Source: Nautilia sp. PV-1 | GTDB lineage: Bacteria; Campylobacterota; Campylobacteria; Campylobacterales; Nautiliaceae | Assembly (NCBI RefSeq): GCF_004006315.1 | Contig: NZ_CP026530.1 | Span: forward strand, 1-64,000 | Reading direction: 5' to 3' | Length of the DNA: 64,000 bases | In this document: piece after piece, positions 5,292 through 23,089 of the stretch | Numbering within the stretch: the stretch's first letter is position 1 | Layout of the letters: every line of letters starts with the position of its first letter | The notes under the pieces: generated by a model | Database searches by the model: none | The model's input: only the letters and a program-made list of their open reading frames with translations | What the model was told of the DNA's origin: nothing | Program-made: the position numbers and the translations under genes

Positions 5292-6488
5292 TTATTTTAT
5301 TATATTCATACTAAACATCGGAAGCAGCATTGCTGTTACGATGAATCCTATCGTTCCCCCTACTATTACGATAAGAGCCGGTTCTATTAAACTTAAAAGA
5401 GTGTTTATTCTGGCTTCGTTTTCTTCAAAATAGATTTCGCTTAAATTTTTTAAAACAGTATCGATTTGTGACGTTTCTTCACCTAACGCAATGGCCTGCA
5501 AAAAGCTAATATCGTAATTAAATCCGGCTTTTTTGAGGGAGACTGAAAGTTTTTTACCTTCTATTACGTCTTTTAACGCTTTTTCGAATTTTTCTTTTAT
5601 TGCTTCGTTTTGTATTGTATTAACTGCAAGATTTACAGCGTTTATATAATTAACGCCTGAATTGACGAGTGTTGATGTAAGATAACTGAATCTTCCGAGT
5701 TCTTTGGCTATTATTATCTGTTTTATAATTGGGATTTTTAAAAGTATTTTATGTATTAAAAGTTTAAATTTCCTGTTTTTAGTATAAAAAATATAATAAG
5801 TTATAATAAGTATTAATATTGCGGCGAAAATAAATAAAAAATTGTTTTTTAAAAAATTTCCGCTGGCAATAACTATTTTTGTTATTGTCGGAAGCTGTTC
5901 GTGCAGATTTTGAAACACCTTTACTATTTTAGGGACTACGGTTGTCAGCATAAAACTGACCGTAAAAACTGCAACTATAATAATAAAAAGAGGATATATC
6001 AACGCCTGTGATGTTTTTGATGAAAGTCTGTTTTCATCTTTTAAAAACCTTGCTATTTCTATAAGGACAATATCAAGTTTTCCGCTTTCTTCTCCTACTT
6101 TAATGGTACTTTTTACATAAGAAGGGAGTTTTATTATTTTTTGTGATTCCAATGAATTATACAGTGATTTTCCTTCCTTTATAGACTGCTGCAGATAATC
6201 CAAAAATTTTATAATTTTATTGTTTTCGCTTTGATTTTTTGTAAGGTTAAGCGCACTTACTAACGGTATGGATGATTTTAAATATAAACCTAGTGTATTG
6301 AAAGTTTTGATAAGCTCTTTTTTCGGTACTTTTGTAAATGAAAAATTAAAATCTATTTTTTTAACAGGTTTGATGTCTGTTATATATAAACTGTTAAGTT
6401 TTTCTTTGGCCTCGTTTTCGCTGTCGGCTTCTATTTTGCCTTTTATTTTTTTACCCTCTTTATCAAAACCTTCATATTTGAAAAGCAT
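5292..6488 (-). CDS. gspF: T2SS inner-membrane platform protein GspF
   Basis: GspF is the polytopic platform protein that couples the GspE ATPase to pseudopilus growth. The 398 aa protein shows two repeated cytoplasmic four-helix domains and three hydrophobic segments (about 165-190, 215-235 and 370-390), the usual GspF/PilC layout. It begins 1 nt after the gspE stop and is last in the K-L-M-N-C-D-E-F run. PilC of a type IV pilus is the alternative, but the GspC, K, L and M neighbours favour T2SS. Confidence 0.9.
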   Translation of the reverse strand: MLFKYEGFDKEGKKIKGKIEADSENEAKEKLNSLYITDIKPVKKIDFNFSFTKVPKKELIKTFNTLGLYLKSSIPLVSALNLTKNQSENNKIIKFLDYLQQSIKEGKSLYNSLESQKIIKLPSYVKSTIKVGEESGKLDIVLIEIARFLKDENRLSSKTSQALIYPLFIIIVAVFTVSFMLTTVVPKIVKVFQNLHEQLPTITKIVIASGNFLKNNFLFIFAAILILIITYYIFYTKNRKFKLLIHKILLKIPIIKQIIIAKELGRFSYLTSTLVNSGVNYINAVNLAVNTIQNEAIKEKFEKALKDVIEGKKLSVSLKKAGFNYDISFLQAIALGEETSQIDTVLKNLSEIYFEENEARINTLLSLIEPALIVIVGGTIGFIVTAMLLPMFSMNIIK

Positions 6489-6489
6489 C

Positions 6490-7992
6490 TTAATCCTTAA
6501 TACCTACTCTTACGGCTTCTGATACCGATGTTTCTCCGTTAATTACCATTTGCGCTATATTTTCTTTTAAAGTTTTCATACCCATTTGTATCATTTTGTT
6601 TTTGAGTTCGATGTCGTTTGTGCCTTTGGCTATTAAGGATTTTATTTCATCGTTCATTATAAACAGCTCTCCTACTGCTTTTCTTTTTATGAATCCGGTA
6701 AAGTTGCATTTGGGACATCCGTTTTCCTTGTATATTTTTTCGGGTGTAAATTTGGAAAGAATAGGATTTTTATTTATTATTTCTTTAAATTTATCCGGAT
6801 CGTCTTCTGTTTTACACTCACACAAAACCCTTACTAGCCTTTGGGAAAGAATACCTATTAAAGACGAAGCTATTAAAAAAGGTTCAACACCCATGTCCAT
6901 TAGTCTTGTTATAGTTGATGCAGCATTGTTAGTATGAAGAGTTGAGAGCATAAGGTGTCCTGTCAAAGCCGCCTGGATAGCTATAGTGGCCGTTTCTTTA
7001 TCTCTAATCTCTCCTACCATTATAATATCCGGATCCTGTCTTAAAATGCTTCTAAGGCCGCTGCTGAATGTAAGACCTACTTTATTGTTTACCTGAATCT
7101 GATTAATATTGTCGGCTTTATATTCTACCGGATCTTCAATAGTGATAATATTTTTAGTTGGAGTCGCTATTGTTTGTAAAAAACTGTGAAGAGTGGTTGA
7201 TTTACCGCTTCCCGTAGGACCTGTAACCAGTATCATTCCATATGAGTGTTCTAGCAGTTCCTTAAAACCTTCTGTTATTTCATCTCCGAAACCTAGTTCT
7301 TTTAAACTCGGAATATCCTCGCTTTCCATAAGAAGTCTTAAAACCGCTTTTTCCCCGAAATAAGTGGGAATAACCGAAACCCTTATATCTGTTGTTTTAT
7401 TTGCTATTTTAATCTGCGTTCTTCCGTCTTGAGGTATTCTTTTTTCGCTTATATCCAGATTTGAAATTACTTTAATTCTGTTTATAATTAAATTGATAAT
7501 GTTTTTTTGAAGAGTGGCCTGTGTTATAAGCACACCGTCAATTCTGAAACGTATAGTTCCGAAATTTTCATGCGTTTCAATATGAATGTCGCTTGCTCTT
7601 TTTTTAACAGCCTGAAAAAACATAGAGTTTACGAATTTAATAATAGGAGCGGAATTTTCGGAATTTAATATATCAAGTCCGCCTTTTATAAAATCGTCAA
7701 GTGATAATTCTTCCTCCACTTCTATGTCGCTGTTTTGAAGCTCTTTTTGTGTTTTTAATTCCAAAAACTGGTTTAAAAGTCTGTTAAAAGATTCGGTGTC
7801 TGTTATTATGAGTTCAAGAGGCAGATCTGTTTTGTTATAAAAATTAAGAGCGTCTATTAATGAATCCTGAGTTGTAAAAAAAAATTTTTTATCTTCTAAA
7901 ATACCCGGAAGCAGAGAATATTTAATACCTTCTTCAATATTAAAATTTTCAATTTGCAGAGCTTTCGGATTTATATTATTTATCTGTTTCAT
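6490..7992 (-). CDS. gspE: T2SS assembly ATPase GspE
   Basis: GspE is the hexameric cytoplasmic ATPase that drives pseudopilus assembly. The 500 aa protein has Walker A GPTGSGKST (258-266), the Asp box IEDPVE (285-290), Walker B DPDIIMVGEIRD (320-331) and the His box GHLMLSTLHTN (345-355). A four-cysteine zinc site (CECK, then CPKC) follows near residues 390-425. The N-terminal 100 residues would contact GspL. Its start overlaps the end of gspD by 17 nt. Confidence 0.94.
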   Translation of the reverse strand: MKQINNINPKALQIENFNIEEGIKYSLLPGILEDKKFFFTTQDSLIDALNFYNKTDLPLELIITDTESFNRLLNQFLELKTQKELQNSDIEVEEELSLDDFIKGGLDILNSENSAPIIKFVNSMFFQAVKKRASDIHIETHENFGTIRFRIDGVLITQATLQKNIINLIINRIKVISNLDISEKRIPQDGRTQIKIANKTTDIRVSVIPTYFGEKAVLRLLMESEDIPSLKELGFGDEITEGFKELLEHSYGMILVTGPTGSGKSTTLHSFLQTIATPTKNIITIEDPVEYKADNINQIQVNNKVGLTFSSGLRSILRQDPDIIMVGEIRDKETATIAIQAALTGHLMLSTLHTNNAASTITRLMDMGVEPFLIASSLIGILSQRLVRVLCECKTEDDPDKFKEIINKNPILSKFTPEKIYKENGCPKCNFTGFIKRKAVGELFIMNDEIKSLIAKGTNDIELKNKMIQMGMKTLKENIAQMVINGETSVSEAVRVGIKD

Positions 7993-9736
7993 TTAATTTT
8001 CTTTTGTTGATATACTCAATTGCAAATTTTCTTTCAAGCTCGTTTAATTTGCCGAGAGTCAGTCTTAATTTATCCAGATCTTTACTTTTTTTAACGATAT
8101 AAGGTGTAAGAACAATTACTAGTGTTGTTCTGTCTTCATTTACTTCTTTGTGTCTAAATAAAGCTCCTAATATAGGAATATCTCCAAAAAAAGGTACTTT
8201 TTTAATGGTGATATCTTTGTTGTTTTTAACAAGTCCTCCAATAATAATACTTTGTCCGTTGTTGACAATAGTGGTTGTTTTGATATCTCTTTTTGAAGTT
8301 ATTGGCAGTGTATTATCAGGAGAACCCGGAAGTATGTCTTCTACTACGGCTTTAACGTCAAGAGATACTTTATCGTCGCTGTCGATTCTTGGTTTTATAT
8401 CCAGAGTAAGACCTATATCCTGTCTTGAATATGATACACTGGTAGATGTTGATGTTGTCTGACCAGTTTTTACAGAAACTGTTTTACCTACATATATGGA
8501 TGAGGGGGTATTATTTATACAAAGAATTGAAGGTTCGCTTAATTTTTTAGCAGCACCGAATGTTTCAAGCAGATCTATTGTGGCGCCCAGTGCCAGTCCC
8601 TGTCTGATTGTAGGAATACTGAGTCCAAGAGTTTGTATGTCTGTTAGTGAAGCAATAGCCGGGCCGCCCATATTTAAACTCATGGTATAGAGTCCGCTGC
8701 TTGTTGCGCTTCCTCCGAATAGGCCAAGTTTTGCACCTATCTGTGAGGCTTTAAGATTGCTTATTTCAAGTATTCTGGCTTTTACGTATACCTGCATTTT
8801 AGGTATGTCAAGAGCGCTTATAATTGTTTTAATTGTATCCATCTGTTCTGGTGTTGCAATAATTATAAGTGAATTTGTTTCTTTATCTTCCGTAACAGAA
8901 GGTTTGTTTTTTTTATATTTTAATGAAACTATTTTGCTTATTATTTTAGACATGTTTGAAACGTCTGAATTTTTAAGTGTAATAATTTCCGTTATCTGGT
9001 TAAGCTGTTTAGGTTTTGTATCCAGTTTTTTAATATTTATTAAAATTTTTTCAATAACTTTTTTTTCTCCGACTAAAATAACTCCATTGTTGTTATCGTT
9101 TTTTATAATTTTATATTTATAAATTCTGGGATTAAACAGTGTTTTTGCTATATCTGATATTTTAGGATATACCTTGTTGATCTGAGTGTTTTTTAAATTA
9201 AAATATATAATATCAGGTTTGTTTAATGTGTCTATTTTGCTTAACAGCTGTTTTATTACTTTAAGGTTTTTTGGATAATCAGTAATAATTAGCATATTTT
9301 TTTCATTATTGATTACTATTTTTCCGTATCTGCTTTTTAAATAGCTTATTTGAGTATATGCTTCTTTTGCAGTTATGTTTTTAAGTTTTATTATGTCTGT
9401 TGTTATTTGAAACGGTGATTTAGAATTTATGGAAGGTGCTTCTCTAAGCGCTTCTGAAGATCTTACAACTTTTAAATATCCGTGTTCGGAAACTATTGTG
9501 TAGCCTTTAGAACGGAGAATATTTAATAAAATATCGTATATTTCATTTTCATTGACAGGTTTGACTGAAATAAAATTGACTTCTCCTCTTATATCATTAG
9601 TGAGCAGTATGTTTTTATTTGTAATTTTAGCCACCATTTTAATAAAATCTTTTATTTCAAGGTTTTTAAAATTAAGTTCTATCTGTGCTCCGAAAAGCAT
9701 CACGCTTAAAATAATTAATAATTTAATTAATTTCAT
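7976..9736 (-). CDS. gspD: T2SS outer-membrane secretin GspD
   Basis: GspD forms the outer-membrane secretin channel. The 586 aa protein has an N-terminal signal peptide (about 1-17, ending FGA), an N0 domain beginning IELNFKNLEIKDFIKMVAKI, and repeated N1-N3 KH-like domains. The C-terminal secretin domain contains RQDIGLTLDIKPRI and GQSIIIGGLVKN. The ATG is preceded by GGTGAT. It overlaps gspC (14 nt) and gspE (17 nt). No pilotin gene is evident nearby. Confidence 0.93.
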   Translation of the reverse strand: MKLIKLLIILSVMLFGAQIELNFKNLEIKDFIKMVAKITNKNILLTNDIRGEVNFISVKPVNENEIYDILLNILRSKGYTIVSEHGYLKVVRSSEALREAPSINSKSPFQITTDIIKLKNITAKEAYTQISYLKSRYGKIVINNEKNMLIITDYPKNLKVIKQLLSKIDTLNKPDIIYFNLKNTQINKVYPKISDIAKTLFNPRIYKYKIIKNDNNNGVILVGEKKVIEKILINIKKLDTKPKQLNQITEIITLKNSDVSNMSKIISKIVSLKYKKNKPSVTEDKETNSLIIIATPEQMDTIKTIISALDIPKMQVYVKARILEISNLKASQIGAKLGLFGGSATSSGLYTMSLNMGGPAIASLTDIQTLGLSIPTIRQGLALGATIDLLETFGAAKKLSEPSILCINNTPSSIYVGKTVSVKTGQTTSTSTSVSYSRQDIGLTLDIKPRIDSDDKVSLDVKAVVEDILPGSPDNTLPITSKRDIKTTTIVNNGQSIIIGGLVKNNKDITIKKVPFFGDIPILGALFRHKEVNEDRTTLVIVLTPYIVKKSKDLDKLRLTLGKLNELERKFAIEYINKRKLNETDK

Positions 9737-10502
9737 AATCTATCACCTTTGTTTTATTATGTCTTTTTATTTCTATTTCTATATGGTTATATTTATCAAT
9801 GTGATTGTATAAATACCATGCTTCAGCGTCATTTTTAAGTTTTATACCGTTTACTTTTATAATTATATCGCCTCTTTTTAATCCTAATTTATCAAAAACA
9901 CTACCTTTTTTTATATAAGTGATTTTATAACCGCTTTTTGCTCTGATTATTCCTATTTCATTCCATATTTTTGAAAAATTTTTTCTGTATTCTTCAAGTA
10001 TGTGTTTTGAAATAATTTTTTTATTTGAATTAATTTTAAATTTCTGTTTATTTTGTTTGATTTTATTTTTTATTTGTTGATTAGACTGGTCAGAATTAAA
10101 AGATAAAATGTATTGTTTTGAATTTTTTTCGAATACTGCATATGAATTATATACTTTTATAAGTTTATATCCTTTATATGTCTGATTAATATCTAAAAAT
10201 ATGCTTTTTCCTTTATCATCTAAAATGATAAAAGCTTTTTTTCCGTCATTATAAACTGCTTTTAATTTTATACCTTCTAACGAAGATACGGTTTTTTGAT
10301 TGTTTTGTGTTTTTATAGGCTGTGGTTTTATTGTTTCTGTTGTAAAAATTCTGGTTAAATCAATATTATAAAATATACTGTCAAATTTTGGAGGTATGTA
10401 AGTAACAGGAAGTTTAGGTAAAAATATACTTATTACACTCCATAAAACTCCGGCTGATAAAAAAGATATTGTAAATATAAACAGATATTTAAAATTTTTC
10501 AT
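9723..10502 (-). CDS. gspC: T2SS protein GspC (HR plus PDZ domains)
   Basis: GspC bridges the inner-membrane platform and the secretin and helps select cargo. The 259 aa protein has one N-terminal transmembrane segment (about 7-28). An HR-like beta domain (about 75-135, beginning GIKLKAVYNDGKKA) follows, then a lysine/asparagine-rich linker and a C-terminal PDZ domain (about 190-258, with KRGDIIIKVNGIKL). The PDZ type of GspC is known from classic T2SS. It overlaps gspD and the preceding gspN-like gene. Confidence 0.85.
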   Translation of the reverse strand: MKNFKYLFIFTISFLSAGVLWSVISIFLPKLPVTYIPPKFDSIFYNIDLTRIFTTETIKPQPIKTQNNQKTVSSLEGIKLKAVYNDGKKAFIILDDKGKSIFLDINQTYKGYKLIKVYNSYAVFEKNSKQYILSFNSDQSNQQIKNKIKQNKQKFKINSNKKIISKHILEEYRKNFSKIWNEIGIIRAKSGYKITYIKKGSVFDKLGLKRGDIIIKVNGIKLKNDAEAWYLYNHIDKYNHIEIEIKRHNKTKVIDYEIN

Positions 10503-10977
10503 AATAGTAATATCCCTTTTTATCTTTTTTTAAGAACTGTTTAATTGCATTGTTATATATTTTTATGAAATATATTCTAATTTCTTTATTTGATAAATTT
10601 ATATTTCCGTAAATGTTTTTTGCAATATTTGATTCTGCTTTTATCTGAATAATAAAAGGATGTATAATATTTTGAGTTAAAGACACTTCGTTTATTTTTA
10701 TATTGTCTATAGGCAGTGTTATATCGGTAATATATAGTTTATTATAAAAAATGTATGGATAAATTAATGCTTTTTTAAATTCTGCGGTTTTTATAGATTT
10801 GTAGTATATTTTACCGTTTGAGAGATTAAGCTTATATATGTCTGATTTTGTATTCGCTGTTAAATAAATACCGTTTTTTGACAGTATATTTTGGATAAAG
10901 TAAAAAATTTCCGTTTTCGGCATAAATATATAAAACCCGATAATAAAACCTGCTAAGACGGTTATAAATTTTTTCAT
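10489..10977 (-). CDS. GspN-like T2SS protein
   Basis: This is a 162 aa protein with one N-terminal membrane segment (about 4-20) and a beta-rich periplasmic part rich in Ile, Lys and Asn. Its place between the gspM-like gene and gspC, with 4-nt and 14-nt overlaps, and its general pattern (repeated strands such as LYITDITLPIDNIKI) suggest GspN. The sequence itself is too divergent to identify confidently. It is much shorter than the usual ~250 aa GspN. Confidence 0.55.
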   Translation of the reverse strand: MKKFITVLAGFIIGFYIFMPKTEIFYFIQNILSKNGIYLTANTKSDIYKLNLSNGKIYYKSIKTAEFKKALIYPYIFYNKLYITDITLPIDNIKINEVSLTQNIIHPFIIQIKAESNIAKNIYGNINLSNKEIRIYFIKIYNNAIKQFLKKDKKGYYYYEKF

Positions 10978-11327
10978 TTAATAATCTCCGCATAAAAATC
11001 AAAATTTCCTTTATTGCTGCTTATACTGAATTTTTTGATTTTAACGTTTGATTTTAAAAACTGGTTTATTGTTCTTAGCTGATTTTTGGACAAATTTGTA
11101 CATTTTATTTTTGAATTTTTAATACTGCATATAGATTTGAGCATTTTTACGGGTTTTTCGGAATATCTGTTTTTAAGATTGATAAATTCATTTGCGGATT
11201 TATAAAATACAATATAATTTTGGTATTCATTTTTTAATTCTTTTTTGCTTTTAATGTATAAATTAAAAAAATTTGCCGTTATAAGCAGCAGTAAAAGTCC
11301 TGTTAATATAAGTATTTTTTTATTCAT
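10974..11327 (-). CDS. GspM-like T2SS protein
   Basis: This small 117 aa protein has an N-terminal transmembrane helix (about 5-25), then a coiled/helical part and a small alpha-beta periplasmic domain. Size, topology and position directly after the gspL-like gene (8-nt overlap) suggest GspM, the partner that stabilises GspL. Sequence conservation in GspM is always low, so the call rests on context. The ATG start overlaps the end of the gspL-like gene. Confidence 0.55.
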   Translation of the reverse strand: MNKKILILTGLLLLLITANFFNLYIKSKKELKNEYQNYIVFYKSANEFINLKNRYSEKPVKMLKSICSIKNSKIKCTNLSKNQLRTINQFLKSNVKIKKFSISSNKGNFDFYAEIIK

Positions 11328-12168
11328 ACAGACTCGCTTTATAAATACCGTTTTTTAACGATGATGTTACTTTAAATTTTTTTGAAAAATATTTGTCAAA
11401 ATTTCTGTCAGTTTTAATTTCAATATTAAAATATTTATCATATGACAGCTTTAAAAATTTTTCTCCTTTTTTTAGAGGTGTTTTAGTAATAAATTCAAGA
11501 CTTTTTCTGATTTTTTTCTGAGTATTGTCTTCATTTTTTAGTTCGTTTAAAATAGACTTTAACTGAAAAGTTGTTTTTGGAAGATTATATTTTTTAATAA
11601 GTGATTCTTTTTGATTTTCCAGACTTTTTATTGCATTTTCATTTTGTATAAATCCTGAAATAAAAATAAAATTTAGCAAAATTAAAATAACAGCCGAATA
11701 AATCAGTATAGATTTGTCCAGATTCAGGCGGTTATATATATTTACGGTATTTTTTGAAAGCTGTATGCTGTTAATAACATCATTAATATTCGGAGCGTCT
11801 TCAACATTTGGAAAGCAAAAAAGCAAATCGTCTACCTTTTGAATTGAATGTTTGTCTGAGACATTTATTTTTTCAAAATTATACAGTTCAGTCTGAGCCA
11901 GTCTTATGGAATTAATATATTTTTTGTCAATATTGATTTTCAGATTTTTTTTAATTGCATAGGCAAAATATTTGCCGTTAAGTTTAAAAGCGTCGTAAAT
12001 ATAGTTTTCATCAAGTTTAAAAAGGGTTTTTGAAAGTTTTTTTGCATCTTTTAAAGATTTGATCGGTATATCTATCTTTTTAATCCAATAGTATTGCGGA
12101 GAAAGAATAACATCGACGGGTTCGCTGATTTTTTCGTTAAAATCTTTAGTATACAGGATTACTCTCAA
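11320..12168 (-). CDS. gspL: GspL-like T2SS protein
   Basis: The 282 aa protein has a cytoplasmic N-terminal part (1-150) resembling the actin-like GspL domain, one transmembrane helix (about 154-173), a coiled segment and a small periplasmic ferredoxin-like domain. This is the GspL/PilM-PilN fusion topology, which recruits GspE to the membrane. It starts with TTG at 12168, preceded by AGGTGAT at good spacing, and overlaps the end of gspK by 23 nt. Confidence 0.68.
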   Translation of the reverse strand: MRVILYTKDFNEKISEPVDVILSPQYYWIKKIDIPIKSLKDAKKLSKTLFKLDENYIYDAFKLNGKYFAYAIKKNLKINIDKKYINSIRLAQTELYNFEKINVSDKHSIQKVDDLLFCFPNVEDAPNINDVINSIQLSKNTVNIYNRLNLDKSILIYSAVILILLNFIFISGFIQNENAIKSLENQKESLIKKYNLPKTTFQLKSILNELKNEDNTQKKIRKSLEFITKTPLKKGEKFLKLSYDKYFNIEIKTDRNFDKYFSKKFKVTSSLKNGIYKASLYE

Positions 12169-13018
12169 CAGAAATCACCTTTTTATTGTGCAGATCATAC
12201 ACAATCTTAATATTTTGCATTTGACTGTTTAAAAAATAAGTTATATCGCTCTCTATCCAGAAACTTTTGTTTTTATCATATGCAATTATATTTAAATTTT
12301 TTATTGTTTTATTGTTTTCTTTATTTTCTATACTTTTGCATGATACAGAATCGCTGAAAGTAAGACCTAAAAATTCTGCAACTTTTTTTGTCATTAAGTT
12401 ACATTCAAGAATATGTTTTCTGCCGTTTCCGAAAAATATAAACTTTTTCCACGGTATACTGTATATATTTTTATCATTAGTCCTTTTATAATAATAGTTT
12501 TCTATCTGTTCAAGATGCTTAAAGTTGTATATTTTTCCGTTTTGAAAATATGGATTTTGTGAAACTATCTCACTGTATGCTTCTCTTTCTTTACTGTCGG
12601 TATCGATTGTATCAAGCAGAAGATCTTTAAAAAACAGGGGATCTTGTATCTGATAATAACTGAGAATATTATCTATATAATTTTCAATATATGTATTTAT
12701 TTTATTTCCGTTTATTAAAGTGTTTATGTCTATTTTATTAAAGAGAGGTTTAATTGTATAAATAATTCTAAAATTCCCTTCTTTACTTGATAAAGGAACA
12801 GTGGTAAAAATTTTTTGAAGGTCTTTTGATGTTTTGATTTTGTCTGAAATTTTAAATAGTATTTGCAGATAATCTTTAATAACAAGGGAATTTTCTGCTA
12901 TATATGAAGGTTTTAATTCTTTTGAATATTTTTCATAGCTATTTAAAACTATATTTAAAATAAATAAAACTGACAATAAAAAAAACAGTGTAATTAAAAG
13001 TGCCACAGATTTTTTCAT
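12146..13018 (-). CDS. gspK: T2SS minor pseudopilin GspK
   Basis: GspK is the large minor pseudopilin at the pseudopilus tip. The 290 aa protein has a short basic leader and a hydrophobic N-terminal helix (about 5-27) with no glutamate at mature position 5, which is typical of GspK. A large periplasmic domain follows that fits the GspK helical insertion pattern (ISQN-like EIVSQNPYF, later FLGLTFSDS). It is first in the minus-strand T2SS run; AAAAGGAAATT precedes the ATG. The divergent promoter region to the lipoprotein genes is 109 nt. Confidence 0.75.
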   Translation of the reverse strand: MKKSVALLITLFFLLSVLFILNIVLNSYEKYSKELKPSYIAENSLVIKDYLQILFKISDKIKTSKDLQKIFTTVPLSSKEGNFRIIYTIKPLFNKIDINTLINGNKINTYIENYIDNILSYYQIQDPLFFKDLLLDTIDTDSKEREAYSEIVSQNPYFQNGKIYNFKHLEQIENYYYKRTNDKNIYSIPWKKFIFFGNGRKHILECNLMTKKVAEFLGLTFSDSVSCKSIENKENNKTIKNLNIIAYDKNKSFWIESDITYFLNSQMQNIKIVYDLHNKKVISVESNPVY

Positions 13019-13068
13019 AATTTCCTTTTAAAGTTGAAATAATTTTTAATTAATATTAATTTAATATA

Positions 13069-13098
13069 TTGACATTTTATCATATAAAGATTTATAAT
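13069..13098 (+). promoter_or_regulatory. Near-consensus sigma70 promoter for the giant lipoprotein gene
   Basis: TTGACA (13069-13074) and TATAAT (13093-13098) are both perfect hexamers separated by 18 nt. The predicted start of transcription is about 13105, giving a short leader with AAAAGGAT before the ATG at 13128. It is the only promoter I found in the window with both consensus hexamers, which suggests strong expression of the first lipoprotein. Confidence 0.75.
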
Positions 13099-13127
13099 AT
13101 ATTAATCCAATATTAAAAGGATATGAA

Positions 13128-16100: not shown

Positions 16101-16817
16101 TTTGAGGCTTATGCTATTAGTTCCGAAAATATTGCGTCAATTTTAGGTGTAACATTACAGCCTATAACTAAAGATAATTTTGTAAATAAAATTTTGGTTA
16201 CTGATGTGTATAGCGGTGATTTGGAAGATAGGGATTATTTAATTTTCGGAACAGACAGTGTGTTTGATGTTGAAGATAATGCAAGCTATGCTTGGAATGT
16301 GGAAAACAATATTTTGCAAATTCAATCATCAAGTCCGGTATATGTAGGAGCAACAGAAGTAAACGGTTCTGTTTATAATGTTAAAGGGATTGATCTTGAA
16401 GACGGATTATTTACAGACACAGTATTAGTTGTAAATGCAAATGAAGATACTATTGTAAATAATCCCGATGATTTCAAAAATCTGTTTGACAATGAGTTTA
16501 TTACATTAGATACTGATGATATTAATGGAACTGCATGGGATGTTGTAAGTTCCGACAATTCTGAAGTTTTCAAATTCAATGATGACGGAACATTTGAATA
16601 TTACTGGTCTGTAGACGGAAATGACTTTAATCTCACAGGAACTTGGGAAGTAAACAACAGCGTTATTGTTGTGGATTTGGATAGGAATGATTATAACTTT
16701 GCAAAAGCATATTACGGTGTATATAAAGAAGATAATTTGACTCTAATAGGTGTAATAGTGGACAGTGACGGTGATGTTGAAGATGTAAATATGAAAGAGT
16801 TGGTTCCTCAAAGATAA
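13128..16817 (+). CDS. Giant exported lipoprotein A with repeated beta modules
   Basis: This 1229 aa protein has a lipoprotein signal with lipobox LIGC (C21) followed by a Gly/Ser linker. An N-terminal domain has a D-rich motif (CLDLNFNGMCDVGEP) like those of SdrD-B or carboxypeptidase-regulatory type beta domains in surface proteins. From about residue 366 at least six divergent modules recur, each with a DDGT-like turn, a G-x-W motif and strands ending in Y-rich segments (near 366, 475, 606, 724, 1053 and 1170). It is very acidic (Asp/Glu/Asn-rich). Its first ~360 residues are paralogous to the next gene. It is a probable T2SS cargo or surface lipoprotein (inference from location). Its actual function is unknown. 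Confidence 0.85.
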   Translation: MKKSTKIILSSVAASIILIGCGGGGSSSTSTSSTGTVSGTVADGYIVNAKVCLDLNFNGMCDVGEPYDNKTGVDGRFSISYNSNLKNVNLAPIVAEPGSDTYDSNIPGEPFVLKLIAPRIGDSLVSVTPLSTVAGLKVVENFDDDNPPSEENITEIKTKVQEALDLNEDIVKVNPSDPEILVKAVTVSQLLEENASGIVEDLVDNDKNLTDIVPEVSDIIEKITDSNTTLSDAEIQQLTQAVINTDIDIDEVNLSDVNNINKTIFIGYLDGIYNEFNSSGLIEEFNLTEWNSTSLAESLMDNNISSLDDLIAKMKEDNFVIDDINLSSVYEMYNRILNMKRVKSIVGEEYSEDINLTQKAVYDIQTGEPIEFYDDGTYKVGDKTGKWWKIGNVLDLNDTLYGVITSVVNNNYMFNITYVDSNNEKIEKTMLSTPFMDGDFNETAVNEIFANNYLTIDSLRYIYMILNIEGSSITLNDDGTTSNRGTWEVLNSSSFKITDNGYTYYLILKTKNLDNFDAYVLKVNGEGKVEYIKESLIPFSVDVEQLKEMLKEEDEISLLPISDDMFANKNALIEGKLFKFYSDHTLDVSYLHFLEKGSPLVLTQDHGYWKIIDNTLLEVQYAGDVYFMAVNEDEGYFYKVLNFEKSMTDYFANFMVFNNLDSIEVNSTDELVEGLNGNPALLSDVNGSIYYANMFINAEDDGVETTCLYFKEDGRFIDYTNYIDEWKLDNNIVSIYGGYIIPVNEENGVINAFYVEYDEDEHSISYMFPVQLEKATSFPLKYSVGNLFGYTWNKVVAWFKDDMSFYNESIETELPYVTIKASKNSIDSVGKAEANVELNNANYLKATLETSLFDDYTTNYVMVTTPQSLTDENGSKVSLMSKVTLSEYNITVSGEVNTDENTETFDVGSCSVDDLNNTKLSVMITTNGKDMIYYNVFTFDDNDNESSICQLEYNISESNLEGVLSFDNVYIGTQIITNDNAQDYNIVNISDFEAYAISSENIASILGVTLQPITKDNFVNKILVTDVYSGDLEDRDYLIFGTDSVFDVEDNASYAWNVENNILQIQSSSPVYVGATEVNGSVYNVKGIDLEDGLFTDTVLVVNANEDTIVNNPDDFKNLFDNEFITLDTDDINGTAWDVVSSDNSEVFKFNDDGTFEYYWSVDGNDFNLTGTWEVNNSVIVVDLDRNDYNFAKAYYGVYKEDNLTLIGVIVDSDGDVEDVNMKELVPQR

Positions 16818-16840
16818 TAAAACTCCTTTTTGGAGTTTTA
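16818..16840 (+). terminator. Rho-independent terminator after giant lipoprotein A
   Basis: A perfect 9-bp stem (TAAAACTCC / GGAGTTTTA) with a TTTTT loop begins at the base after the stop codon and is followed by TTTTAAT. This separates the strongly promoted first lipoprotein gene from the second. The second gene would then need its own promoter in 16841-16955, where I see only AT-rich sequence with a possible TAAAAT at 16922-16927. Confidence 0.8.
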
Positions 16841-16955
16841 TTTTAATCTCATCATATCTTCATAACTTCCATATTCATTCATAACATTTTATATATTAAG
16901 CAAACATTAAGATTATCATAATAAAATATTATGTCAAATCAAAAAAGGAGAACGG

Positions 16956-19900
16956 ATGAAAAAGAGTACAAAAATATTACTTTCAAGTATAGCAGCATCA
17001 ATTTTATTAATTGGATGTGGCGGAGGAGGTGGAAGTGGAAGTTCGTCAGCTAGTACTACCGGTACCGTATCAGGAACTGCAGTAGATGGTCCGGTATCGT
17101 ATGCGAAGGTTTGTCTGGATTTAAACTTTAACCAAAAATGTGATTCAAATGAACCTGTGGCTACTACGGATGCTAGTGGTAAGTTTTCTATTACATATAA
17201 TTTAAGTGAACAGAATAGTTCAATTGCACCTGTGTTAATGCTGCCAACCCCTGACAGTAAAGATATTTATACAGGTAATGTTGTAACAGTTTCGATGTCT
17301 GCACCAAGAGCGGGACACAGTACGTTAGTTGTATCTCCTATTACAACAGTAGCGGCTGCAGCCGTATATCAAAAAGTTGAAAACAATGAAACTGTTACTC
17401 CGGATGTAGTTGAGGAAGTTGTAAATAAAGTTGCGGAAGCGTTGGATCTTAATGGAACAGATATTACTCAGGTAAATCCTACTGAGGATCCAAAGCTTTT
17501 AGTTACAGCTGTAACGCTTGCTAATGTTATTGAAGATGGTAATATTACACAAGTGGCTACAAATATTGTAGACAATAATGAAACAAATATTACTGCAGCG
17601 CTTCCTGCCGATTATCAAAGTGTTTACGAAACAATTGTTAATTCTGTGGATGAAAACACATCTTTAGAAAGTGATCAGCTTCAGCAGTTAGTAGAAAGCA
17701 GTTTAGATTCAAATGATACTACTGTTTTAGAAAAAGTTGTCAGTGATAATAACGTTACGGATGCTGATATTGCTCAAGCACTTGTTGAAGGTCAGTTAAA
17801 TGTTATTTATAATGATTTGAATTCAAGTGGATTATTGGCATTAAATGCTCCTGGATTTGATTACAATATTTCAGATATGAATAGTACTTACGTTGCTGAA
17901 CAGTTAGTTAATGAATATAATATAACTGATGCCAAAACATTAATGGAAGAATATAAAAATACTGATTTAGAAGTTAATTTAACTACTTCAGGAAATGAGA
18001 CAAACCTTTCAAGTGCTATAGAAATGTATAATGTCCTTCAGGCTGTCAGAGCATTTAAAAATTCGGCTGGAGTTCAATTTGCCGGTATTAATTTAGCAAA
18101 TGTTACAATATATAGAGCCGGAGGAGATGGAAGCCCGCTATATTTTGATCAGAATGGAAGTTTTTCTGATTATTTATTTGATGAAGACAACGGAACATTA
18201 AATCAAAATGGAAACGGTGTATGGAATGAATTAGAAGATGTAGTTGTATTAAAATACAACAATTTTGAAAATCCTGCATATGTAGGTGTAGAAGAAACAA
18301 ATAATACTCTGGTTCCTGTGGTAGGTTATGATGCCAGCGGTCAGGAATTTAATGACAATGTAGTAATTACAAATCTTACTCCGGTAACTGAAGTTAATTC
18401 AAGTACAGAAATTGCAGCGTCTATTCTAAATGCTCAATTTGGTGAGTTTAATGCTACTGATATTAACGGAAGTACTTATATTACTCAAACAGGAACTACA
18501 CTTACATTTAATACTGACGGAACTATATTGTTGAATGGAAAAGATATTGGTGATTGGAGTGTCGATGCTAACGGTGCGATTGTTCTTCCTTATTATGAAG
18601 GAAAAGTATATGTGCTTAAAGGAAAAGATTTAAGCGATTATTCAAGTGAGGCTTATTTTGTGTTTGTTGATGCAAGCGGACACGTATTGTCCATTCAGGA
18701 AAGAACGTTTACAAAATATGTAGAAAATGCTGATGCTGTTCTTTTGGCAAAAAATATATTCTCTTCATTGAGAACTCAGATTAATTCAGTATCAAATGCC
18801 GATGAAAACGGTACTTTAGATATGGAAGCCAACAAATTTAATGAACAGTTACAAGATATTACTTTTGATAATATTGAAACAGCAGGAAACACATTGGCTT
18901 CATTAATTAGTGGTATTGTGGATAGCAATTTAAGCGGTACTGTTGAATTGGATAATCCTGATTTAAACAGAACGTTTACTTTATCAACTGATGATAATTT
19001 AACTTATAGTTACAGTATAAAAGATGATTTAAACGGTACTGTAAAAGAATATAATGGTACTATTGTGTTAAATCAGCAGATACCTGAAGATTTAAACAGT
19101 TCTTTTGATATTACAATGAATGTTGTAGGTCAGTTACCTGCTTCAGATGAAGAAGAAGTTGCTCAGGATATTAACACTTCAATTGAATTAAAATATGACG
19201 CAGATACTTATACATTTGATTTATTAGTCAGTAAAATGAATGTAACAGATGAAAATAAATCCATTGAAGCAAGTAATATTGAGATTGAAGCGGCTGGAAC
19301 TGATCAAAACTTAAGTGAATTAAAATATGTAAAATTAAACAGTTTTACTATTGATGGTAAAGCAGGAGATTTTGAAGCAGACGGAACTGTAAATGTGCAA
19401 TATGTTCAAAATCCTTTAGTAAAAGCTGAAAGTAACGATCAGGCGTTTAAATATTACTACAATATCAATGGATATTTTGTATGTATGGATGATAATGGTA
19501 ACGAAGAATTCAATATGACACTTCCAAATGAACTTAATATCAGTATTGACGGAACTACATATCAGCTTCCTGTAAATCCGTCTGATGCGCAACAACAGGG
19601 TGCACCATGGTATAATGTTTTTGCAACTGTTGAGTCAAGTAATGAGATTGATATTGATGACTGGTATTATTCTTTAGAAGGGGCTGTAGAAAGTCAGGTT
19701 GTATGTAATGATGCCAATTACACTGCCCATATTTACGATAATTATGGACAACAAACAATTTGGGTAGATGAAGATGATGATTTCTTAAATGACGGATGGG
19801 TACCTAATAATATTACATTTACAGGTACTGTTAGGGACGTTAATACTTCTACCACTTTGCAAGGAACTATTTCAGCATCGTCAAATGATATAGGCAGTGT

Positions 19901-20285
19901 TGATTTGGAAAATACAGAAGGTTTAAATACAGAAATTTCACTTGCAGTAAAATTAATAAGAGAAGGTTTTGCTGATACTAATGTAAATTCAACATTTACT
20001 TCTTCTGTAGACGGAAGTACTACATTAGATTTATCTTATAATGTAGACGGAACTGATTTTGGAACAGTAACTTTATCAGGCAAATGGGATGATAATGGAA
20101 ACGGAACAGTTACCGTTACTTCTACAAGCGGGTTAAAAGTAACAATTCCTGTTAAAAACGGTGATATTGACTATACAAATTCTATTCCGGTTTATGTAAC
20201 TGACAAAGTTGTAGGATATATCGAACAAAGAGACGGTATACCTGTAATTAAATACAATGACGGAACTTTTGAATCAATAAATTAA
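16956..20285 (+). CDS. Giant exported lipoprotein B (paralogue of A)
   Basis: The 1109 aa protein shares with lipoprotein A an almost identical signal and lipobox (C21 in LIGC), the Gly/Ser linker, the CLDLNFNQKCDSNEP domain and a helical stretch up to about residue 360. Two W-type modules follow (near 391-430 and 515-550). The second half (about 600-1109) is long and beta-rich, with two separated cysteines and Asn/Asp/Thr-rich strands unlike A. AAAAAAGGAG precedes the ATG. A barrel gene starts 1 nt after its stop, so the two are probably translationally coupled. Probable surface or secreted protein; function unknown. Confidence 0.85.
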   Translation: MKKSTKILLSSIAASILLIGCGGGGGSGSSSASTTGTVSGTAVDGPVSYAKVCLDLNFNQKCDSNEPVATTDASGKFSITYNLSEQNSSIAPVLMLPTPDSKDIYTGNVVTVSMSAPRAGHSTLVVSPITTVAAAAVYQKVENNETVTPDVVEEVVNKVAEALDLNGTDITQVNPTEDPKLLVTAVTLANVIEDGNITQVATNIVDNNETNITAALPADYQSVYETIVNSVDENTSLESDQLQQLVESSLDSNDTTVLEKVVSDNNVTDADIAQALVEGQLNVIYNDLNSSGLLALNAPGFDYNISDMNSTYVAEQLVNEYNITDAKTLMEEYKNTDLEVNLTTSGNETNLSSAIEMYNVLQAVRAFKNSAGVQFAGINLANVTIYRAGGDGSPLYFDQNGSFSDYLFDEDNGTLNQNGNGVWNELEDVVVLKYNNFENPAYVGVEETNNTLVPVVGYDASGQEFNDNVVITNLTPVTEVNSSTEIAASILNAQFGEFNATDINGSTYITQTGTTLTFNTDGTILLNGKDIGDWSVDANGAIVLPYYEGKVYVLKGKDLSDYSSEAYFVFVDASGHVLSIQERTFTKYVENADAVLLAKNIFSSLRTQINSVSNADENGTLDMEANKFNEQLQDITFDNIETAGNTLASLISGIVDSNLSGTVELDNPDLNRTFTLSTDDNLTYSYSIKDDLNGTVKEYNGTIVLNQQIPEDLNSSFDITMNVVGQLPASDEEEVAQDINTSIELKYDADTYTFDLLVSKMNVTDENKSIEASNIEIEAAGTDQNLSELKYVKLNSFTIDGKAGDFEADGTVNVQYVQNPLVKAESNDQAFKYYYNINGYFVCMDDNGNEEFNMTLPNELNISIDGTTYQLPVNPSDAQQQGAPWYNVFATVESSNEIDIDDWYYSLEGAVESQVVCNDANYTAHIYDNYGQQTIWVDEDDDFLNDGWVPNNITFTGTVRDVNTSTTLQGTISASSNDIGSVDLENTEGLNTEISLAVKLIREGFADTNVNSTFTSSVDGSTTLDLSYNVDGTDFGTVTLSGKWDDNGNGTVTVTSTSGLKVTIPVKNGDIDYTNSIPVYVTDKVVGYIEQRDGIPVIKYNDGTFESIN

Positions 20286-20286
20286 T

Positions 20287-21351
20287 ATGAAAAAGTTCCT
20301 TCTTTTTCTTCCTTTTTTTTTATTTGCCAGTGAGCTAAGTTTTTTTAATCCTTGGAATAGAAACAATTCTGTATATTTTAATTTACAGTTAAAAAATTCT
20401 AATGATTTTATACCTTCATGTGATTTTCTCCATAATTGGAATACTTTTTATTCCAAAGGCGGGACAAATTACGCATATATGAATTCCAGAATTGATTTTG
20501 GAGGATATTATAAAAGCTATTATATCGGTATAAGTAAGAGGTTGGATTTTTATATAAAAACAAATAGAGACACTGCTGAATTTATTTATGATTTAATATC
20601 TGGAAACAATTTAACTCCTGATTATGTTTATGATATTGATTTATATTTGAAAGCATATATGCTGAGCAGTTTTATAGTTGGTAAAAAATTTATAAATGAA
20701 AAATTAAGTATTTTTGTCGGAGGAGAGCTTATATCAGTGCAGGAATATCAGGATGGATCTGTGACTGGTAAAGTTATTTCATTGTCAAACAACGATTATT
20801 ATTATAATGCGAAAGCGGATTACTATTTTTCTAAAAATTATCTTTACAGCGGCTGGAACTACGAAAAACCGTCAAACGGTTATGGAAAAAGTTTTTATTT
20901 AAGTTTGAAATACAATATAAATAATATTTCAAAAATTTTATTAAATATTAATGATTTATTCGGAAGGCTTTTTATAAAAAATTCACCGCACAGTATTGTA
21001 TATCTTAACTCTTCAAATAAAAAATATGATTCCAGCGGACATATTGTATATGATCCTTTAATTTCAGGAAAAGAAGAATATGTCAATTATACACTCAAAA
21101 TGGTTACAAAATATAATATTGAATATGAGTATAAAAAATACTTTATAGGATGTGATAAATATGATAAGCTTGTTTTACCTTATATAGGGTTAAAATATTA
21201 TAAGTTTAAGTTTACTTATGGAAGTAGATTTAAAAATTTTACAGTTAACTTTAAGAACAGATATTTTTCTATAGGATTGAATACAAATAAATTAAATTTG
21301 AAAAAAGCCAGTTCTTTTGGTGTTTTTGTTGGTTTGAATTACAACTTTTGA
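20287..21351 (+). CDS. Putative outer-membrane beta-barrel protein
   Basis: The 354 aa protein has a signal peptide (about 1-14, ending FAS) and a Tyr/Asn/Lys-rich body of alternating amphipathic strands. It ends in GVFVGLNYNF, with the terminal aromatic residue expected of an outer-membrane barrel signal. I do not recognise a family. It starts 1 nt after giant lipoprotein B and is followed after 25 nt by gspG. A role in anchoring, exporting or partnering the lipoproteins is an inference from this packing. Confidence 0.7.
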   Translation: MKKFLLFLPFFLFASELSFFNPWNRNNSVYFNLQLKNSNDFIPSCDFLHNWNTFYSKGGTNYAYMNSRIDFGGYYKSYYIGISKRLDFYIKTNRDTAEFIYDLISGNNLTPDYVYDIDLYLKAYMLSSFIVGKKFINEKLSIFVGGELISVQEYQDGSVTGKVISLSNNDYYYNAKADYYFSKNYLYSGWNYEKPSNGYGKSFYLSLKYNINNISKILLNINDLFGRLFIKNSPHSIVYLNSSNKKYDSSGHIVYDPLISGKEEYVNYTLKMVTKYNIEYEYKKYFIGCDKYDKLVLPYIGLKYYKFKFTYGSRFKNFTVNFKNRYFSIGLNTNKLNLKKASSFGVFVGLNYNF

Positions 21352-21357
21352 TAAAAT
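21349..21357 (+). promoter_or_regulatory. Extended -10 element before gspG
   Basis: TGATAAAAT overlaps the TGA stop of the barrel gene (21349-21351) and ends 19 nt before the gspG ATG. It repeats the dnaN/gyrB arrangement, where a stop codon supplies the TG of the extended -10. It would let the pseudopilin genes be transcribed separately from the lipoprotein. Confidence 0.45.
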
Positions 21358-21376
21358 TATTTAAAAAAGGTATTGG

Positions 21377-21796
21377 ATGAAAAAAGCGTTCAGTTTGATT
21401 GAGGTAATGATTGTAGTTGTTATTTTGGGACTTATTGCGTCTCTTGTGGTTCCGAATCTTATAGGTCAGAGCGAACAGGCTAAAAAAAAGCTCGTATGTG
21501 TTCAGATGAAATCCCTTAAAGACGCACTTGATTCTTTTAAAGTAAACGAAGGAAGCTATCCGACAACGGAAGAGGGACTTGAAGCGCTTATTCATAATCC
21601 TGATCCTCAGAAATACAAAAACTATCCTGCAAACGGATTTTTAAGCTCAAAAAAACTGCCGAAAGATCCTTGGGGAAATGATTATATATACGTCAACAAT
21701 GACGGAAACATTGATATTATTTCATTAGGAGCCGACGGAAAAGAAGGCGGAAGCGGAGAAAATAAAGACATAAAATTCAGTGAATGCGAAAATTAG
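21377..21796 (+). CDS. gspG: T2SS major pseudopilin GspG
   Basis: GspG is the main subunit of the pseudopilus piston. The 139 aa protein has a short MKKA leader, the prepilin motif FSLIE with Glu at mature +5, a hydrophobic helix, and the conserved segments YPTTEEGLEAL and DPWGNDYIY. A C-terminal acidic loop (GADGKEGGSGENKDI) resembles the calcium-binding loop of GspG. The residue before cleavage is Ala rather than Gly. gspH overlaps its end by 13 nt. Confidence 0.95.
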   Translation: MKKAFSLIEVMIVVVILGLIASLVVPNLIGQSEQAKKKLVCVQMKSLKDALDSFKVNEGSYPTTEEGLEALIHNPDPQKYKNYPANGFLSSKKLPKDPWGNDYIYVNNDGNIDIISLGADGKEGGSGENKDIKFSECEN

Positions 21797-22236
21797 CTTT
21801 TAGTTTAATCGAACTTATTATTGTAATTCTGATAATAGGGATCGTAAGTTTTCTTGTTATCAGACTTCCCTCTTTTTATTTTTCTTCCGATATTACCGAT
21901 TTGCAAAGCAGACTTTCTCCAAACGGTGAAATAACCGTGTATAAAAACGGCACCGTTGTCAGCAGCAAAAAAGTAATTTTTAACTGTGAAAATCCTGAAG
22001 TGTATGAGTTTATTAACGGAAGTTTTGAGAAAAAAATATATCAAAAAGAAAATGAGAAAACCCCCGTATTTAAATACAGGGTTGAAAACGGAGCGGGGGA
22101 AAGTTTTATATTAAAATGTAAAAATGTCTGGTATGTATTTAAACCGTTTAGGATTTTGAAGTTTAAAAATGAAAATGAAGCCGAAAATACTTTTTTAAAC
22201 AGTAAATATTTTCCTAAAATAGGGAGTTACTATTGA
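21784..22236 (+). CDS. gspH: T2SS minor pseudopilin GspH-like
   Basis: The 150 aa protein begins MRKLA followed by FSLIELIIVILIIGIVSF, a type IV prepilin leader with Ala at -1 and Glu at +5. The rest is a small beta domain. Order G-H-I-J and size support a minor pseudopilin, probably GspH. It overlaps gspG by 13 nt and the next gene by 4 nt. Confidence 0.75.
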   Translation: MRKLAFSLIELIIVILIIGIVSFLVIRLPSFYFSSDITDLQSRLSPNGEITVYKNGTVVSSKKVIFNCENPEVYEFINGSFEKKIYQKENEKTPVFKYRVENGAGESFILKCKNVWYVFKPFRILKFKNENEAENTFLNSKYFPKIGSYY

Positions 22237-22610
22237 AAAAAGCGTTTACTCTGATAGAAATAATGATAAGCGTTGCTATTGTTTTTGTAATAATGAGTGT
22301 AGCTTTACAGATTACTTCGAATGCGAAGCATCTGTTTTTACTAAATAAAGATTATGATACGTTTGTATATAAGTCAAGTGCCGCTCTTTTCGGAAAAGGC
22401 AAAAATTTATATGAAAAACTCAGAGATTTTAATATCCGTAATGACAAAATCATTCATATTTTAAAAAAAGAAAGATTAAATGTGAAAAATGAACTTGAAT
22501 TTTCGGAAAATGAAAATATCAATTCCAAAAATATTCAAATTATTATGAATAAGATAAAAGTATATAATAAAGCCCATCAGGTTAAATATTATTCTGTGGA
22601 AATAAAATGA
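22233..22610 (+). CDS. gspI: T2SS minor pseudopilin GspI-like
   Basis: The 125 aa protein has the prepilin leader MKKA and FTLIEIMISVAIVFVIMSV with Glu at +5, then a short soluble domain. It is assigned GspI by its place between the GspH-like and GspJ-like genes and its small size. It starts with TTG, since the 4-nt overlap with the preceding gene reads ...TATTGAAAAAA, and overlaps the next gene by 4 nt. Confidence 0.7.
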   Translation: MKKAFTLIEIMISVAIVFVIMSVALQITSNAKHLFLLNKDYDTFVYKSSAALFGKGKNLYEKLRDFNIRNDKIIHILKKERLNVKNELEFSENENINSKNIQIIMNKIKVYNKAHQVKYYSVEIK

Positions 22611-23089
22611 AAAAATCTTTTACGTTGATTGAACTTTTGATATCTATAGTGATTCTTTCGATTATGGTGTTTGTTTTAAGCGGGGTGGTTAAAAATATGA
22701 ATATTTCAAAAAACATGCTTCAAAATACTTTAAACAACGAGCACTATAAAAAACTTGCGTTAAAAGTGCTTTATTATGATATTTTAAATGCCAAATATAT
22801 AAATCTTTCTCAAAGAGGGGACTATACGGTAGTTTATATGCAGACTACTGATTCTTTGCATAATATGCCTGCGCCGTATGTTGTATGGTATGTAAGCAAG
22901 ACCGGTAACACATTAATGAGAATGGAAATGCCTAAAAAAGTAACTTTTTTATCAAATGCAAGAAATTATTATTTGGATAAATTTGCACAAAATGTTAAAA
23001 TATTTAAAATATACAGGTATTTTTATAAATATTTTGTTTATATTGATGACGGAAAACCAATTTATTTTGAAATGTATAAAGGATTTTGA
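22607..23089 (+). CDS. gspJ: T2SS minor pseudopilin GspJ-like
   Basis: The 160 aa protein starts MKKS followed by FTLIELLISIVILSIMVFVL, a prepilin leader with Ser at -1 and Glu at +5, and a beta-rich soluble domain. Position after G-H-I suggests GspJ, which caps the pseudopilus with I and K. Its TGA stop overlaps the ATG of the thyX-like gene by one base, which links the T2SS genes to the housekeeping genes behind them. Confidence 0.75.
   Translation: MKKSFTLIELLISIVILSIMVFVLSGVVKNMNISKNMLQNTLNNEHYKKLALKVLYYDILNAKYINLSQRGDYTVVYMQTTDSLHNMPAPYVVWYVSKTGNTLMRMEMPKKVTFLSNARNYYLDKFAQNVKIFKIYRYFYKYFVYIDDGKPIYFEMYKGF

What the first reader, a model, noticed from the sequence alone, without database searches (positions are those of the whole stretch)
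5292..23089. Split T2SS locus wrapped around its likely cargo genes
The minus-strand run K-L-M-N-C-D-E-F and the plus-strand run G-H-I-J together form a nearly complete type II secretion system (only the prepilin peptidase is missing). They diverge around two giant lipoprotein genes and a barrel gene. T2SS can export lipoproteins (PulA of Klebsiella is the known example). Their placement inside the machine makes them the best cargo candidates. A self-contained surface-export island of this form in this lineage would be novel as far as I can tell.
Basis: partly seen in the sequence, partly recalled or inferred. Interest (0 to 1): 0.72.

Follow-up and report, generated by a model that had tools for sequence, protein, structure and literature searches.

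The report
T2SS locus with hyper-glycosylated lipoprotein cargo
A hot-vent bacterium (Nautiliaceae) carries an ordinary type II secretion machine into which its own lineage has inserted genes for two giant lipoproteins that look like its surface cargo: they have the known export tag, unusually dense predicted sugar-attachment sites, and in one case a dedicated outer-membrane barrel partner whose family is found almost only in bacteria that have this machine.

Summary
F-E-D-C-N-M-L-K (-) and G-H-I-J (+) of a true type II secretion system (T2SS) flank two giant lipoproteins (1229 and 1109 aa) and a predicted outer-membrane barrel. The machine is not self-contained: the only prepilin peptidase lies 1.1 Mb away. 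It is not new to the lineage: GspD is in 207 of 399 sampled genomes of the order. In other genera of the family K and G abut, so the lipoproteins are a genus-level insertion.

The cargo idea gained independent support. (1) Both lipoproteins carry Cys-GGGG(S), the sorting motif shown to be required for T2SS surface lipoproteins in Acinetobacter. (2) LipoB and the barrel are an obligate, previously unnamed pair in 24 genomes; lipoB ends in [IV]KYxDG[TS]FES; 23 of the 24 have T2SS GspD, and the pair lies beside T2SS genes in four genera. (3) Both lipoproteins are packed with PglB-type N-glycosylation sequons (25 and 35, about 1 expected each), and the genome has one PglB.

Best reading: hyper-N-glycosylated surface lipoproteins exported by the T2SS, lipoB held by its barrel. 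Export and glycosylation are inferred, not shown.

The parts
5292..6488 (-). gspF
   Evidence: PF00482 1.3e-44; TIGR02120 2.1e-86
6490..7992 (-). gspE ATPase
   Evidence: PF00437 1.5e-131; TIGR02533 1.7e-163
7976..9736 (-). gspD secretin with N0 domain
   Evidence: PF00263, PF03958, PF21305; TIGR02517 3.3e-102
9723..10502 (-). gspC with PDZ domain
   Evidence: TIGR01713 1.3e-21; PDZ; one N-terminal TM
10489..10977 (-). gspN-position gene (162 aa); functional equivalent of GspN unproven
   Evidence: position, one N-terminal TM; no PF01203 match in 16 homologues
10974..11327 (-). gspM-position gene
   Evidence: position, one N-terminal TM; no sequence match
11320..12168 (-). gspL-position gene
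   Evidence: position, single central TM at residues 150-168; no sequence match
12146..13018 (-). gspK minor pseudopilin
   Evidence: prepilin-like N-terminus; hhalign to E. coli GspK E 8.6e-5, probability 60%
13069..13098 (+). perfect sigma-70-like promoter (TTGACA-18-TATAAT) ahead of lipoA
   Evidence: 12/12 match
13128..16817 (+). lipoA: 1229-aa lipoprotein, Cys-GGGGSSS, 25 D/E-X-N-X-S/T sequons
16819..16844 (+). terminator-like hairpin AAAACTCC-TTTTT-GGAGTTTT-A-TTTT after lipoA
   Evidence: read from the sequence; not in the tool's own terminator list
16956..20285 (+). lipoB: 1109-aa lipoprotein, Cys-GGGGGSGSS, 35 sequons, conserved C-terminal tail VIKYNDGTFESIN
20287..21351 (+). lipoB-partner outer-membrane beta-barrel (354 aa, no Pfam/NCBIfam family)
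21377..21796 (+). gspG major pseudopilin
   Evidence: TIGR01710 above cut-off, PF08334
21784..22236 (+). gspH-position pseudopilin
   Evidence: N_methyl, just below cut-off
22233..22610 (+). gspI-position pseudopilin
   Evidence: N_methyl
22607..23089 (+). gspJ-position pseudopilin
   Evidence: N_methyl

Best explanation
This is a genuine T2SS of a Nautilia-like vent bacterium with two of its own surface substrates encoded inside the locus. Proposed steps: (1) lipoA and lipoB cross the inner membrane by Sec and are lipidated on the cysteine before GGGG (sequence-based inference). (2) In the periplasm the single PglB attaches N-glycans at many of the dense D/E-X-N-X-S/T sites (inferred). (3) The Gly/Ser-rich tag keeps them off the Lol route and hands them to the T2SS, which moves the folded lipoproteins through the GspD pore to the cell surface (inferred from the experimentally shown role of this motif in Acinetobacter). 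(4) LipoB is held or completed at the surface by its dedicated barrel, probably through the invariant C-terminal tail KYxDGTFES (inferred from obligate pairing). LipoB, the barrel and GspG-H-I-J form one likely operon, so cargo and pseudopilus would be made together.
For: Cys-GGGG(S) matches the Gly/Ser-rich P2'-P4' motif required for T2SS/GspN-dependent surface lipoproteins (PMC12802150). In 27 stretches covering about a third of this genome (516 ORFs) lipoA and lipoB are the only Cys-GGG lipoproteins; other lipoboxes have different following residues. LipoB and barrel: 24 of 399 genomes hold both, always adjacent where the flank could be read. 23 of the 24 have GspD against 207/399 overall (Fisher 1.9e-6; high-quality genomes 17/17, p 7.6e-6; genus level 14/14, p 0.004). 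Relatives of lipoA 15/15 and of lipoB 16/16 fall in T2SS-bearing genomes among 60 (p 1.8e-4 and 8.6e-5). T2SS linkage recurs: lipoB-barrel-GspG in G299, J-lipoB-barrel in G020, beside J in G032; other GGG lipoproteins beside J or G in G011, G037, G047, G052. Gaps lipoB-barrel 1 bp and barrel-gspG 25 bp. Sequons 25 and 35 versus mirror motif 3 and 2, and about 1 expected from the genome sample; PglB present.
Against: No experiment shows export, lipidation or glycosylation. In most barrel-bearing genomes the pair is not next to T2SS genes. Co-occurrence is weakened by shared ancestry: within Nautiliaceae alone it is 3/10 versus 0/11, p 0.09. One barrel genome (G190, 76% complete) shows no T2SS GspD. 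The gene at the gspN position has no detectable GspN homology. The sample tested for GGG lipoproteins covers only about a third of the genome.
Confidence: 0.6

Rival explanations
1. The barrel itself exports lipoB (a Slam-like two-gene surface-display system); the T2SS neighbourhood is incidental and lipoA takes another route.
For: Obligate lipoB-barrel pairing with a conserved C-terminal tail, and pairs far from T2SS genes in several genomes.
Against: No Pfam or NCBIfam match, so no DUF560/Slam signature; the protein is a bare barrel of 354 aa without the N-terminal TPR region of Slam; fold search finds only generic barrels; GspD co-occurs in 23/24.
Confidence: 0.15
2. LipoB and the barrel are a surface nutrient-capture or channel pair; the T2SS exports other, unlinked enzymes, and the linkage reflects repeated insertion at a permissive divergent site.
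For: K and G abut in other genera of the family; the G014 relative of lipoA lies after queF, not beside the T2SS; most pairs are unlinked.
Against: The GGG sorting tag; T2SS-restricted distribution; four genera with T2SS linkage, two of them with lipoB-barrel directly ahead of gspG.
Confidence: 0.2
3. The locus is a type IV pilus or DNA-uptake (Cts-like) machine rather than a T2SS.
For: T2SS, T4P and competence machines are homologous, and E and F score below their equivalog cut-offs.
Against: GspC-PDZ, the GspD N0 domain, GspG above cut-off and GspK are T2SS features; the genome has two separate MshL-type secretin loci.
Confidence: 0.05

Closest known systems
PulA/PulN and InvL/GspN: T2SS surface lipoproteins (Klebsiella, Acinetobacter)
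   Same: large lipoproteins with a sorting motif after the lipid cysteine (GGG in InvL), exported by a T2SS (PMC12802150)
   Different: here the cargo is encoded inside the gsp locus, lipoB has a dedicated barrel and an invariant C-terminal tail, sequons are very dense, and no PF01203 GspN is detectable
Slam-dependent surface lipoproteins
   Same: a lipoprotein gene paired with an outer-membrane barrel gene
   Different: no DUF560/TPR; unrelated barrel; distribution follows the T2SS
T2SS of Nautilia sp. PV-1 (PMC10092268)
   Same: gspD is the 7th gene (RS00035), as in the window counted from dnaA; GspCDEFLM annotated
   Different: that paper's text does not mention lipoproteins; the window's strain was not named to me
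Campylobacter PglB glycoproteins
   Same: D/E-X-N-X-S/T sequon and a PglB (PMC4894442 for the -2 acid rule)
   Different: 25-35 potential sites in one protein, next to a T2SS

Membership tests
Type II secretion system | GspC, D, E, F, G core with T2SS-specific domains (PDZ, N0, GspG) | tested here: met
   only GspG exceeds its equivalog cut-off
Type II secretion system | GspK | tested here: met
   hhalign E 8.6e-5, probability 60%, shared motifs; no Pfam match
Type II secretion system | GspL and GspM | tested here: inconclusive
   order and topology fit; no sequence homology
Type II secretion system | prepilin peptidase available | tested here: met
   one Peptidase_A24 at 1,118,158 of the chromosome
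T2SS-dependent surface lipoprotein | lipobox plus GGG or ND(N/D) sorting motif | tested here: met
   Cys-GGGGSSS and Cys-GGGGGSGSS; motif from PMC12802150
T2SS-dependent surface lipoprotein | GspN (PF01203) present | tested here: not met
   no match in the locus or its homologues; one dubious hit in 399 genomes
T2SS-dependent surface lipoprotein | loss from the surface in a gspD mutant | not testable with these tools
   needs genetics
Slam (DUF560) | DUF560 barrel with N-terminal TPR | tested here: not met
   no Pfam hit at E 0.1 or NCBIfam hit at 0.01; 354-aa bare barrel
PglB N-glycoprotein | D/E-X-N-X-S/T sequons above chance, PglB in genome | tested here: met
PglB N-glycoprotein | glycan observed on the protein | not testable with these tools
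   needs glycoproteomics

The most novel reading that the evidence does not exclude
LipoB plus barrel is a dedicated T2SS-dependent display pair: the T2SS exports a hyper-N-glycosylated lipoprotein, and the barrel captures its invariant C-terminal tail at the surface, giving a glycan-coated surface layer of a kind not described in bacteria as far as I could find.
Probability: 0.3. Interest if true: 0.78.

Novelty: new variant of a known kind. Interest (0 to 1): 0.58.

Why it matters
T2SS cargo is hard to predict because no general export signal is known. Here three independent clues (sorting tag, conserved partner barrel with a tail motif, T2SS-restricted distribution) point to the same proteins, and the tail motif gives a search key for more. 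If the sequon density reflects real glycosylation, these would be among the most heavily N-glycosylated bacterial proteins predicted, and would link the PglB pathway to type II secretion. One full-text search found no paper joining the two.

Tried and rejected
Families for K-N: Pfam on 15-16 homologues each of K, L and N, and PDB profile searches with K, L and M, gave only chance hits. PDB sequence searches with the barrel and lipoB C-domain profiles: nothing meaningful. Fold search of the barrel: generic barrels with low TM-scores. Fold search of the lipoB C-domain: nothing at E <= 0.001. GspN in the order: one hit on a contig end that looks foreign, not used. Considered and rejected: 'self-contained island'; competence or pilus machine; a claim that all T2SS-linked GGG lipoproteins are homologous (G037, G047 and the 697-aa one of G052 show no detectable relation to lipoA/B). 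Linkage p-values assume a 2-Mb genome and random placement, and many pairs sit on short contigs, so I treat them as rough and do not lean on them.

Full report
Setting. The window starts at dnaA of a single-contig 1.79-Mb genome: dnaA, dnaN, gyrB, queF, then the reported locus, then thyX. A named MAG with a 65% identical GspD is 'Nautiliaceae bacterium'. In Nautilia sp. PV-1 the published gspD locus tag is RS00035, the 7th gene, as here (PMC10092268). I therefore take it to be Nautilia or a close relative; this is inference.

The machine. D, E, F, C and G are clear T2SS proteins. K aligns with E. coli GspK over 150 columns. L, M and N are assigned by order and topology only. The chromosome has one prepilin peptidase, two other MshL-type secretin loci and further GspE/PilB-like ATPases, so the T2SS presumably shares its peptidase with pilus systems and is not self-contained. 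T2SS GspD occurs in 207 of 399 genomes of the order.

The insertion. In the same-genus genome G002 the divergent layout is kept with one 505-aa GGGG lipoprotein between K and G. In G003, G006, G007, G011, G014, G016 and G020, K and G lie back to back with nothing in between. The split layout is therefore probably ancestral in the family and the lipoprotein genes are later arrivals. In G014 a lipoA relative sits directly after queF, near dnaA and away from the T2SS.

The lipoB-barrel module. The lipoB C-terminal domain (about residues 590-1109) and the 354-aa barrel gene are adjacent in every genome where the flank could be read. Profile searches of 399 genomes found the barrel strongly in 24 genomes and the lipoB domain in the same 24, plus two short matches in incomplete genomes. 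The 23 distinct tail-bearing proteins read end in [IVL][KRH][YF]xDG[TS][FV]E[ST][LIF]x. The barrel model is confident but has no specific solved relative. The lipoB domain is beta-rich with no solved relative.

Link to the T2SS. 23 of 24 barrel genomes have T2SS GspD against 52% overall (Fisher 1.9e-6; genus level 14/14, p 0.004). The exception is a 76% complete genome. Shared ancestry inflates the first figure; within Nautiliaceae alone p is 0.09. The pair is beside T2SS genes in the window, in G299 (lipoB-barrel-gspG-gspF), in G020 (after gspJ) and in G032, and 9 kb away in G003. In complete genome G058 and on one long contig of G052 it is far away.

Sorting tag. Both lipoproteins carry Cys-GGGG(S). 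A 2025 study showed that a GGG or ND(N/D) motif at P2'-P4' is required, though not sufficient, for T2SS- and GspN-dependent surface display (PMC12802150). In 27 stretches of the genome (the window, 20 evenly spread 20-kb samples and six stretches fetched earlier) only lipoA and lipoB have it.

Glycosylation sites. LipoA has 25 and lipoB 35 D/E-X-N-X-S/T sequons; the mirror motif occurs 3 and 2 times; N-X-S/T sites without the acid number 7 and 8. The background is 0.93 per 1000 aa, so about one is expected in each. Across the tail-bearing family it is 155 sequons against 28 mirrors. The genome has one full-length PglB homologue (below the model's curated cut-off, so a distant member). The other sequon-rich proteins in the sample are an autotransporter (18) and a 901-aa exported protein near a pilus locus (30), which fits a surface-protein pattern. 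Occupancy of the sites is unknown.

Expression. A perfect consensus promoter precedes lipoA and a hairpin follows it. LipoB, barrel and gspG-H-I-J are nearly contiguous, so they are likely co-transcribed (inference).

Verdict. Observation confirmed. Cargo idea well supported but unproven; 'self-contained' and 'novel in lineage' not supported. The new content is the T2SS-associated lipoprotein/barrel pair and its extreme sequon density.

Noticed in passing
L221:3922-6627 (genome about 1343922-1346627, minus strand): 901-aa exported protein with 30 D/E-X-N-X-S/T sequons (mirror 2), a few genes from an MSHA-type pilus locus whose pilin-like proteins also carry several sequons; possibly a glycosylated pilus-associated protein.
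   Followed up: partly
L203:7501-12027 (genome about 267501-272027, minus strand): 1508-aa autotransporter (PF03797 1.3e-37) with 18 sequons: dense sequons seem to mark surface proteins of this genome.
   Followed up: partly
L041:7722-9360 (genome about 1102721-1104359, minus strand): A GspE/PilB-like ATPase is split into two overlapping reading frames: a possible frameshift in a pilus or competence gene.
   Followed up: no
L040:7800-13306 (genome about 1220800-1226300, minus strand): A second MshL-type secretin cluster, separate from the one in L039; two MSHA-like systems besides the T2SS.
   Followed up: partly
L042:7011-9999: Phage-like late genes (by eye) near the prepilin peptidase gene; a possible prophage.
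   Followed up: no
G016:C14:904-1095 (L136): A short lipoA/lipoB-like fragment lies after queF, as the full-length relative does in G014: possible remnant of an ancestral lipoprotein gene at this site.
   Followed up: no
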